Both the position numbers and the translations under genes were made by a program. This document shows, one piece after another, positions 1 through 1,421 of a DNA stretch of 64,000 nt. This stretch comes from Streptomyces cucumeris. Its GTDB lineage: Bacteria; Actinomycetota; Actinomycetes; Streptomycetales; Streptomycetaceae. The notes under the pieces were generated by a model that searched no databases, was not told the origin of the DNA, and saw only the letters and a program-made list of their open reading frames with translations. Position 1 is the stretch's first letter. Each line of letters opens with the position of its first letter. The DNA is taken from positions 1 through 64,000 of the forward strand of contig NZ_JANCLX010000035.1 of the NCBI RefSeq assembly GCF_024295805.1, read 5' to 3'.

Positions 1-237
1 GTGATCACTACTTTAGCGGATTTCCCCCGAGGCTCATAATCGAGCTTCCGAACCGAATTCCGGCATGCCGAAATCCATCCCGATGAGGGGCCGTGCAGTA
101 GTGGTGTGCCGCCGGTGCGGCGTGAGTTGCTGTCCCGTTCCCCTGGGGGCTCCGTGACAACCCGCAGAACATTACACGACGCTCCCGTGGCCACCAAACC
201 GTGGCCGCCGACCCCCCGAGCGCGTACTCTCATGCTC

Positions 238-279
238 ATGACGAAGCATGCGCACACCCAGCAGTGGTGGGCCGCCTGA
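238..279 (+). CDS. Trp leader peptide of the trpS attenuator
   Basis: This 13-codon ORF reads MTKHAHTQQWWAA and carries two consecutive Trp codons (265-270) just before its stop at 277-279. An in-frame ATG at 232 would add two residues. There is no Shine-Dalgarno sequence, but a TAnnnT -10 candidate (TACTCT, 225-230) ends 7 nt upstream of the ATG at 238, so a leaderless transcript starting at or next to this ATG is plausible; the -35 is poor. The Trp codons lie directly in front of four GC-rich segments that can pair alternatively. This is the arrangement of ribosome-mediated attenuation: stalling at the Trp codons when charged Trp-tRNA is scarce would favour read-through into trpS. S. coelicolor trpRS1 is reported to be controlled in this way. 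Confidence 0.85.
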   Translation: MTKHAHTQQWWAA

Positions 280-329
280 CGGCGGCCGCCCAGCGCATGC
301 ACTTCCACGGCCGCCCCTCCGGCGGCCGT
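270..329 (+). promoter_or_regulatory. Trp attenuator with mutually exclusive hairpins
   Basis: Four segments are visible: segment 1 GGCCGCC (270-276), segment 2 GGCGGCC (281-287), segment 3 ACGGCCGCC (307-315) and segment 4 GGCGGCCGT (321-329). Segments 1:2 form a 7-bp hairpin overlapping the leader stop codon. Segments 2:3 can pair as an antiterminator. Segments 3:4 form a perfect 9-bp terminator stem with a 5-nt loop. A ribosome stalled on the Trp codons (265-270) would cover segment 1 and free segment 2 for pairing with 3. The terminator lacks a clear U-run, as is usual in Streptomyces. Confidence 0.82.
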
Positions 330-401
330 TCGCGTATCTCCTTCCCCGCGTACTCCGGCCGCAGGTCCGGCGGCCTTGAGACGGCGGGAGAGAACACCGA
401 C

Positions 402-1421
402 ATGGCACAGACGAAGACGGCACGTCCGCGGATCTTCAGCGGGGTCAAGCCGACCGGCCATCTGACCCTCGGCAACTACCTGGGGGCCGTGCGCCGGTGG
501 GTCCAGGAGGACCAGCACCGGTCCGACGCGCTGTTCTGCGTCGTCGATCTGCACGCGCTGACCGTGGAGCACGACCCCGCCCGGGTGCGGCGGCTCACCC
601 GGCAGGCGGCCACCCTGCTGCTGGCCTCGGGGCTCGATCCCGAGCGGTGCACCGTGTACGTCCAGAGTCATGTGGACGCGCACACCCGGCTGTCCTATCT
701 GATGGAGTGCACCGCGACCGACGGTGAGATGCGCCGGATGATCCAGTACAAGGAGAAGACGGCGCGGGAACAGGCGCGGGGCGGGAGCGTACGGCTGTCC
801 CTTCTCACCTATCCCGCGCTGATGGCGGCCGACATCCTGGCGTTCGACACGGACGAGGTGCCGGTCGGCGACGACCAGGTACAGCACGTGGAGCTGGCCC
901 GGGATCTGGCACAGCGGTTCAACCAGCGCTACGGCCCGGTCTTCACGGTGCCGCGGGCGACGCGCCCGCAGGTGGCCGCGCGGGTCATGGACCTCCAGGA
1001 CCCGCGGTCGAAGATGGGGAAGTCGCATGCCGAGACGGCGGGGATCATCTATCTGCTCGATGAGACGGACGTGGTCCGCAAGAAGGTGATGCGCGCGGTG
1101 ACGGACAGCGGGACGGACGTGGTGTACGACCCGGTGGAGCGTCCGGGGGTGGCCAATCTGCTGGATGTGCTCGCCGCGTGCACCGATGACAAGCCGGAGG
1201 TGCTGGCCGGGCAGTTCTCCTCGTACGGGGCGCTGAAGGGCGCGGTGGCCGAGGCAGTGGTGGAGCTGCTGCGGCCGGTCCGCGCCCGGCACGCGGAGCT
1301 GTGTGCCGACCCCTCTTATGTGGACGGGGTGCTGCGGGCCGGGGCGGAGCGGGCGCGGGGGCTGGCGCGGCCCCGGGTCGACGCGGCGTACGCGGCGGTG
1401 GGGCTGCTGCCGCCCGCGTGA
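402..1421 (+). CDS. trpS: tryptophanyl-tRNA synthetase, trpRS1-like
   Basis: Class I aminoacyl-tRNA synthetase of 339 residues that charges tRNA-Trp in the cytoplasm. The HIGH-type motif appears as TGHLTLGN near residue 20 and the KMSKS loop as KMGKS near residue 205; length is normal for the family. The ATG at 402 follows GGGAGAG at a slightly long spacing; the open frame extends further upstream but through the leader region. The sequence resembles S. coelicolor SCO3334 (trpRS1), the inducible indolmycin-resistant enzyme, rather than the housekeeping copy. The attenuator at 232-329 supports this. It ends 1 nt before the convergent proC stop. Resistance itself is inferred from family likeness, not from identified residues. 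Confidence 0.95.
   Translation: MAQTKTARPRIFSGVKPTGHLTLGNYLGAVRRWVQEDQHRSDALFCVVDLHALTVEHDPARVRRLTRQAATLLLASGLDPERCTVYVQSHVDAHTRLSYLMECTATDGEMRRMIQYKEKTAREQARGGSVRLSLLTYPALMAADILAFDTDEVPVGDDQVQHVELARDLAQRFNQRYGPVFTVPRATRPQVAARVMDLQDPRSKMGKSHAETAGIIYLLDETDVVRKKVMRAVTDSGTDVVYDPVERPGVANLLDVLAACTDDKPEVLAGQFSSYGALKGAVAEAVVELLRPVRARHAELCADPSYVDGVLRAGAERARGLARPRVDAAYAAVGLLPPA

What the first reader, a model, noticed from the sequence alone, without database searches (positions are those of the whole stretch)
232..329. Complete ribosome-mediated attenuator in front of trpS
A 13-codon peptide with tandem Trp codons stands directly before four segments that form 1:2, 2:3 and 3:4 hairpins, the last a perfect 9-bp terminator. 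The mechanism is known for trp operons and reported for S. coelicolor trpRS1. Here the whole device is readable, and its ORF seems to start at the mRNA 5' end (-10 candidate TACTCT at 225-230), so a leaderless attenuator peptide is a specific new prediction.
Basis: partly seen in the sequence, partly recalled or inferred. Interest (0 to 1): 0.72.

Follow-up and report, generated by a model that had tools for sequence, protein, structure and literature searches.

The report
Known leaderless Trp attenuator of trpS
In front of a spare tryptophanyl-tRNA synthetase gene, this Streptomyces-like bacterium carries a tiny tryptophan-sensing gene and an RNA switch that should turn the synthetase on when charged tryptophan tRNA runs short; the device is real and conserved in relatives, but the same kind of element, including its start right at the RNA's end, was already reported in a related species.

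Summary
The feature is real. A 13-codon ORF with tandem Trp codons (MTKHAHTQQWWAA, 238-279; the in-frame ATG at 232 is not the conserved start) is followed by mutually exclusive hairpins 1:2, 2:3 and 3:4, then trpS (402-1421). The same leader precedes trpS in 71 of 73 fetched loci; the two misses are MAGs of other lineages. A TANNNT -10 lies 6-7 nt before the start in 70 of 72 sequences (8-9 in two), with no Shine-Dalgarno seen, so a leaderless peptide is well supported. In 297 family genomes the leader accompanies this TrpRS in 133 of 136; the other three are masked upstream. Two more keep a leader relic without an intact gene. The central claim is not new: RNA-seq of S. lividans (PMC8079986) reports trpL2 (MMTRTCTQLWRAA), 13 aa, leaderless, two hairpins, no U-tract, before trpS; Seliverstov 2005 predicted a trpS attenuator; a 2010 paper, seen by title only, reports attenuation of a resistant TrpRS gene. 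Small additions: the outer stem, conserved ribosome geometry, a WblC-like promoter, and a similar leaderless attenuator on a different trpS in another genus of the family.

The parts
194..199 (+). CCAAAC, conserved upstream promoter element (TCAAAC in 41 of 70 sequences); resembles the WblC motif GAAAWY
   Evidence: CAAA[CGT] or CAA[TG]C between -45 and -19 of the -10 in 61 of 70 sequences, 57 of them at -29 to -32, against 6.75 in mononucleotide shuffles; WblC motif from PMC7157823
202..207 (+). candidate -35 TGGCCG, 17-bp spacer to the -10
   Evidence: T[GT]G[AC] at 16-19 bp spacing in 32 of 70 sequences, 3.65 in mononucleotide shuffles
225..230 (+). -10 element TACTCT
   Evidence: TANNNT-to-start gap in 72 sequences with the leader: 6 nt in 23, 7 in 47, 8 in 1, 9 in 1; the start codon had been picked with a 5-9 nt gap required
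238..279 (+). leader peptide ORF MTKHAHTQQWWAA with stop TGA; expected transcription start at or next to 238
   Evidence: W[WR][AP]A-stop anchor upstream of trpS in 72 of 74 sequences
246..253 (+). 5' arm of outer stem, within codons 3-6 of the leader ORF
   Evidence: pairs with 293-300; this helix covaries
270..276 (+). segment 1 GGCCGCC, last base of the second Trp codon plus the two Ala codons
   Evidence: pairs with 281-287; 95.1% of cells paired in 70 sequences
281..288 (+). segment 2 GGCGGCCG
   Evidence: can pair with segment 1 or with segment 3; 2:3 has 93.9% of cells paired
293..300 (+). 3' arm of outer stem
307..315 (+). segment 3 ACGGCCGCC
   Evidence: 99.0% of 3:4 cells paired in 70 sequences
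321..329 (+). segment 4 GGCGGCCGT, 3' arm of a terminator-like hairpin without U-tract
357..375 (+). post-terminator hairpin region
   Evidence: inverted repeat I10, arms 357-365 and 367-375; a hairpin lies here in the minimum-energy fold
386..390 (+). Shine-Dalgarno-like GGGAG of trpS
   Evidence: mostly paired in the predicted ensemble (mean unpaired probability of its purine run 0.13)
402..1421 (+). trpS, 339 aa, auxiliary TrpRS (the genome's second copy is 47% identical)
   Evidence: TIGR00233 309.2 bits, cut-off 176.75; second TrpRS at G000:C3:127361-128353

Best explanation
This is the attenuator of an auxiliary TrpRS gene, of the same kind as, and very probably orthologous to, S. lividans trpL2-trpS. 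A promoter at about 202-230 starts RNA at or next to A238, so the ribosome initiates on a leaderless AUG. When Trp-tRNA is charged, the ribosome runs to the stop codon, covers segment 2, and 3:4 folds and stops RNA polymerase before trpS. When charged Trp-tRNA is scarce (starvation, or a TrpRS inhibitor such as indolmycin), the ribosome waits at codons 10-11, covers segment 1 and the 5' arm of the outer stem, 2:3 forms, 3:4 cannot, and trpS is transcribed. If the leader is not translated, 1:2 with the outer stem forms and 3:4 terminates by default. Shown by sequence comparison: the ORF, promoter spacing, mutually exclusive pairings, outer-stem covariation and co-occurrence with this trpS. Inferred: the start of the RNA in this organism, termination without a U-tract, ribosome positions, and the response to Trp-tRNA charging.
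For: W[WR][AP]A-stop leader in 72 of 74 sequences. TANNNT-to-start gap 6-9 nt in 72 of 72 (start picked with the motif required), only one other TANNNT in the 60 nt before the 72 starts, and 0 of 70 with a Shine-Dalgarno-like run before the leader. Structure 1:2 plus outer stem: 40 cells changed on both sides against 14.8 +/- 3.1 in shuffles, 0 of 500. 2:3 and 3:4 paired in 93.9% and 99.0% of cells. Segment 2 starts 16 nt after the first Trp codon and 4 nt after the stop codon in 63 of 70, which fits a footprint edge about 12 nt past the A-site codon start (recalled). Strong model hits and this TrpRS coincide in 133 of 136 TrpRS genomes, the other 3 masked upstream. Precedent: S. lividans trpL2, leaderless, 13 aa, two hairpins, no U-tract.
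Against: No U-tract and no terminator by the consensus scan. Segments 1-4 barely vary, so 1:2, 2:3 and 3:4 show no change on both sides; one 1:2 pair is broken in 21 of 70. For the outer stem two of the five measures do not exceed shuffles (pairs with a change on both sides 6 against 5.0; pair types 14 against 13.0), a slide of +2 still gives 31 such cells, and relatedness is not controlled. Four of 72 leaders have a single regulatory Trp codon (WRAA). No expression data for this organism; codon changes in the ilvB leader of S. coelicolor had no effect, as cited in PMC1262725.
Confidence: 0.9

Rival explanations
1. Attenuation as above, but with a strong second layer: the trpS Shine-Dalgarno is sequestered by sequence behind the terminator, so the leader also or mainly acts on translation of trpS.
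For: The Shine-Dalgarno purine run is less accessible than with shuffled upstream sequence in 56 of 70 sequences (mean unpaired 0.258 against 0.409); own complementarity (16.4) exceeds 300 of 300 reassignments of partners.
Against: Relatedness is not controlled and the cross-species mean is close (15.5). Forced 2:3 opens the site by more than 0.05 in 28 of 70, closes it in 9, and does nothing in the window (0.13 against 0.15).
Confidence: 0.15
2. The 3:4 hairpin is not an intrinsic terminator; Rho or RNA processing cuts off the message when the leader ribosome moves on.
For: No U-tract behind the stem in the window.
Against: Stem nearly invariant in 70 sequences; the S. lividans authors attribute trpL2 termination to two hairpins without U-tract; 49 of 70 sequences, the window not among them, have 5 or more T in the 10 nt counted from the end of GGCGGCC.
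Confidence: 0.15
3. The leader is translated from a longer 5' UTR (start at ATG 232 or further upstream), not leaderless.
For: An in-frame ATG at 232 and an in-frame GTG at 187 exist here.
Against: The -10 would end 1 nt before 232; the gap to the 238-type start is 6-7 nt in 70 of 72; S. lividans trpL2 is reported as leaderless.
Confidence: 0.06
4. Chance inverted repeats in GC-rich DNA with an accidental small ORF.
For: GGCCGCC-type repeats recur: 16 inverted pairs in 150-450.
Against: 0 of 200 shuffles fold as well; conserved across 70 distinct sequences; co-occurrence with the gene.
Confidence: 0.01

Closest known systems
S. lividans trpL2-trpS attenuator (PMC8079986; section 14 read in full)
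   Same: 13-aa Trp leader (MMTRTCTQLWRAA against MTKHAHTQQWWAA), leaderless, hairpins, no U-tract, before trpS
   Different: one Trp codon there, two here; that section gives no competing-fold or covariation analysis
Auxiliary, antibiotic-resistant TrpRS gene under ribosome-mediated transcriptional attenuation (Vecchione and Sello 2010; only the title seen in a reference list; text not held)
   Same: same kind of gene and mechanism, by the title; that it is S. coelicolor trpRS1 is recalled
   Different: details could not be compared
Trp attenuators of Streptomyces and Corynebacterium trp operons and S. avermitilis trpS2 (Seliverstov 2005, PMC1262725; part 1 of 3 and passages read)
   Same: repeated Trp codons; complementary GGCC-type triple shared by antiterminator and terminator
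   Different: trp operon terminators there are followed by poly-U; the one here is not
Leaderless trpL of Sinorhizobium meliloti (PMC7298713, passages)
   Same: the attenuator RNA begins with the ATG of the leader ORF
   Different: controls trpE(G), other phylum, peptide also acts in trans

Membership tests
Ribosome-mediated transcription attenuator (trp type) | short leader ORF with codons of the regulating amino acid | tested here: met
   present in 72 of 74 sequences; its translation was not tested
Ribosome-mediated transcription attenuator (trp type) | mutually exclusive 1:2, 2:3, 3:4 pairings | tested here: met
Ribosome-mediated transcription attenuator (trp type) | ribosome geometry: a stall leaves segment 2 free, a ribosome at the stop codon covers it | tested here: met
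   16 nt and 4 nt in 63 of 70; footprint size recalled
Ribosome-mediated transcription attenuator (trp type) | expression responds to Trp-tRNA charging through the Trp codons | not testable with these tools
   needs reporter assays
E. coli-type intrinsic terminator | U-tract directly after the stem | tested here: not met
   tail TCGCGTATCTCC after 329, no hit in the scan; not filed as a member
Streptomyces trpL2/trpRS1-type attenuator | homologous leader before an auxiliary trpS | tested here: met
   S. lividans TrpL2 MMTRTCTQLWRAA is letter for letter the leader of L081 with its GTG start read as Met, and L081 aligns with the window
Streptomyces trpL2/trpRS1-type attenuator | leaderless transcription | tested here: inconclusive
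   promoter spacing and lack of a Shine-Dalgarno agree; 5' end not mapped in this organism

The most novel reading that the evidence does not exclude
The leader is a two-input stress sensor: an antibiotic-induced WblC-type promoter fires straight onto a leaderless Trp-reading ORF, so the spare TrpRS is made mainly when translation stress and uncharged Trp-tRNA coincide, and leaderless initiation keeps the sensor working when ordinary initiation is impaired. A similar leaderless Trp attenuator was acquired separately by a non-orthologous trpS in another genus of the family.
Probability: 0.2. Interest if true: 0.5.

Novelty: already known. Interest (0 to 1): 0.25.

Why it matters
It shows that the published trpS attenuator of S. 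lividans belongs to a family-wide element tied to one auxiliary synthetase, gives a fold with a covarying outer stem to mutate, and suggests that leaderless Trp attenuators stand on more than one kind of trpS. It does not by itself open a long-standing question.

Tried and rejected
Rfam at gathering thresholds finds nothing in the window. A genome-wide ATG-N12-TGGTGG pattern was uninformative (69 forward and 64 reverse matches against 99 and 71 for the reversed control). Model R1 finds one copy in this genome, so no second member was found. In a phylum sample 16 of 396 genomes match: 9 of the same genus (own included; best E 8.9e-16 or lower) and 7 others at 1.8e-5 or weaker, which I did not follow (strict filters). 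Of the weak family matches I inspected 14 loci: 8 are WWW leaders before genes that look like trpE by eye (L110, L111, L116, L117, L121, L122, L123, L125), 4 stand before another trpS (L112, L115, L118, L120), 2 show no Trp leader (L119, L124). Not inspected: G049, G252, an antisense match in G013, and further matches that one search counted but did not list.

Coupling of 2:3 to release of the trpS Shine-Dalgarno was tested and is weak, absent in the window. In one search I read the second TrpRS in a wrong frame, so its absence from that BLAST table means nothing; replace it.

Full report
What is there. Window 402-1421 encodes a tryptophanyl-tRNA synthetase (TIGR00233, 309.2 bits). Upstream, ATG 238 to TGA 279 encodes MTKHAHTQQWWAA. 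Segments 1-4 are at 270-276, 281-288, 307-315 and 321-329. The leader folds better than 200 of 200 shuffles (z -3.77). The scan of 1-600 finds neither a sigma-70-consensus promoter nor a U-tract terminator.

Comparison. A protein search of genome contigs gave 73 loci. With the window, 74 sequences were examined: 72 carry a leader ending W[WR][AP]A-stop upstream of trpS; the misses, L078 and L079, are MAGs titled Solirubrobacterales and Nealsonbacteria. Endings: WWAA 48, WWPA 20, WRAA 4; starts ATG 65, GTG 7. Two loci with identical leader stretches (L022, L051) were dropped for the alignment, leaving 70. The gap from TANNNT to the start codon is 6 nt in 23, 7 in 47, 8 in 1 and 9 in 1 of 72; elsewhere in the 60 nt upstream the motif occurs once in all 72. 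The start codon was chosen with a 5-9 nt gap required, so the spacing is partly conditioned; for L081 an alternative GTG start gives gap 6 and 13 codons. None of 70 has a Shine-Dalgarno-like run at -16 to -5.

Structure. 1:2 plus the outer stem is 94.9% paired, with 40 cells changed on both sides against 14.8 +/- 3.1 in shuffles (0 of 500), and pairing drops to 22.6-47.9% when slid by 1-3 columns. All changes on both sides lie in the outer stem (6 of its 8 pairs); 1:2 itself has none, and one of its 7 pairs is broken in 21 of 70. Against this: the number of pairs with a change on both sides (6 against 5.0) and of pair types (14 against 13.0) do not exceed shuffles, a slide of +2 still gives 31 such cells, and shuffles do not control for relatedness. 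2:3 (93.9%) and 3:4 (99.0%) show no covariation because their segments barely vary; that is expected where one segment must pair with two partners, but it is not independent proof. A per-sequence test gives a longest outer stem of 7.19 bp with the own partner, 5.83 with other sequences' partners and 4.03 with shuffled partners. Segment 2 begins 16 nt after the first Trp codon and 4 nt after the stop in 63 of 70. With a footprint reaching about 12 nt beyond the A-site codon start (recalled), a ribosome waiting for Trp-tRNA leaves segment 2 free and one at the stop covers it.

Distribution. Model R1 has one hit in this genome. In 297 family genomes 145 match at E <= 0.001; 10 of these have only matches weaker than 1e-8, leaving 135. 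This TrpRS at E <= 1e-115 is in 136 of 297. Both occur together in 133. The three with protein only (G033, G100, G200) read N upstream. The two with leader only look like relics: in G229 (L104) the aligned start is ACG and a protein search of the 2.4-kb stretch finds no trace of this TrpRS; in G023 (L105) an intact-looking leader precedes a TrpRS remnant matching residues 2-42 and then 332-339 only. In a phylum sample only same-genus genomes score strongly, 9 of 396 with the own one.

Promoter. A CAAAC-type element lies upstream of the -10 in 61 of 70 sequences (6.75 in shuffles), and a TKGM -35 at 16-19 bp in 32 of 70 (3.65 in shuffles); relatedness is not controlled. The paper on S. coelicolor WblC reports GAAAWY, 3 bp, TKGMNN, 16-19 bp, TANNNT, with most starts 7-8 bp downstream of the -10, and names trpS SCO3334 among WblC-activated genes (PMC7157823, passages). 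The common TCAAAC element, 3 bp before TGG in many relatives, matches GAAAWY at 4 of 6 positions; in the window the spacing is 2 bp. So the link is a suggestion. That SCO3334 is the ortholog of this gene is recalled, not tested.

Another trpS with the same device. In four loci of unnamed genus g14 of the family a trpS 35-40% identical to this one follows a leader of the form MK...CLNWWPS (12 codons) whose ATG lies 6-7 nt behind TACCCT or TACGCT. The one tested is a TrpRS by TIGR00233 (233.5 bits) and 37% identical to this genome's other TrpRS. The second TrpRS of this genome shows no Trp leader in the sequence read before its start (by eye).

Literature. PMC8079986, section 14: TrpL2, MMTRTCTQLWRAA, 13 aa, before trpS, leaderless, two hairpins, no uridine-rich stretch. 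The same section calls leuL1, leuL2, trpL1, ilvL, metL and thrL leaderless. PMC1262725 (part 1 of 3 and passages): classical attenuators predicted before trpS in some Streptomyces. Vecchione and Sello 2010 was seen only as a title and is not held. Kitabatake 2002 and Vecchione and Sello 2009 are cited in PMC9437257 for the indolmycin resistance of TrpRS1 (passages). A leaderless trpL attenuator is known in S. meliloti (PMC7298713, passages), and leaderless poly-Cys attenuators in mycobacteria were seen as a reference title. I ran eight paper searches; the one for Streptomyces, leaderless, trpS and attenuator together returned only PMC8079986.

Verdict. Real, conserved and well interpreted as to mechanism, but of a described kind whose leaderless start is in print for S. 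lividans.

Noticed in passing
L112 (reverse strand; 567-665 of the reverse complement), L115 209-309, L118 202-303, L120 186-286: A different trpS (35-40% identical to this one) in unnamed genus g14 of the same family has its own leader MK...CLNWWPS with TANNNT 6-7 nt before ATG: a similar leaderless Trp attenuator on a non-orthologous synthetase.
   Followed up: partly
L104, L105: Leader relics without an intact trpS: L104 has no trace of this TrpRS in the stretch fetched, L105 keeps residues 2-42 and 332-339 only.
   Followed up: yes
L010, L030, L039, L048, L074 (upstream of trpS): In all five loci given to Rfam a 16S rRNA gene lies on the other strand, its 5' end about 735-940 bp upstream of trpS; many draft contigs, the window's too, end just upstream of trpS, probably for this reason.
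   Followed up: partly
window 330-400: The Shine-Dalgarno of trpS tends to be paired with sequence behind the terminator in relatives (56 of 70 against shuffles).
   Followed up: partly
L113 1900-2500: One trpE-like gene of this genome follows a hisI-like gene (by eye) with no WW leader between them, while relatives have WWW leaders before trpE-like genes. The region before the other hit, L114, was not examined far enough to say.
   Followed up: partly
G132:C189:697-1689, G115:C1:4453582-4454574: TrpRS genes of this type with one in-frame stop each (TAG, TGA): possible recent pseudogenes or sequencing errors.
   Followed up: no
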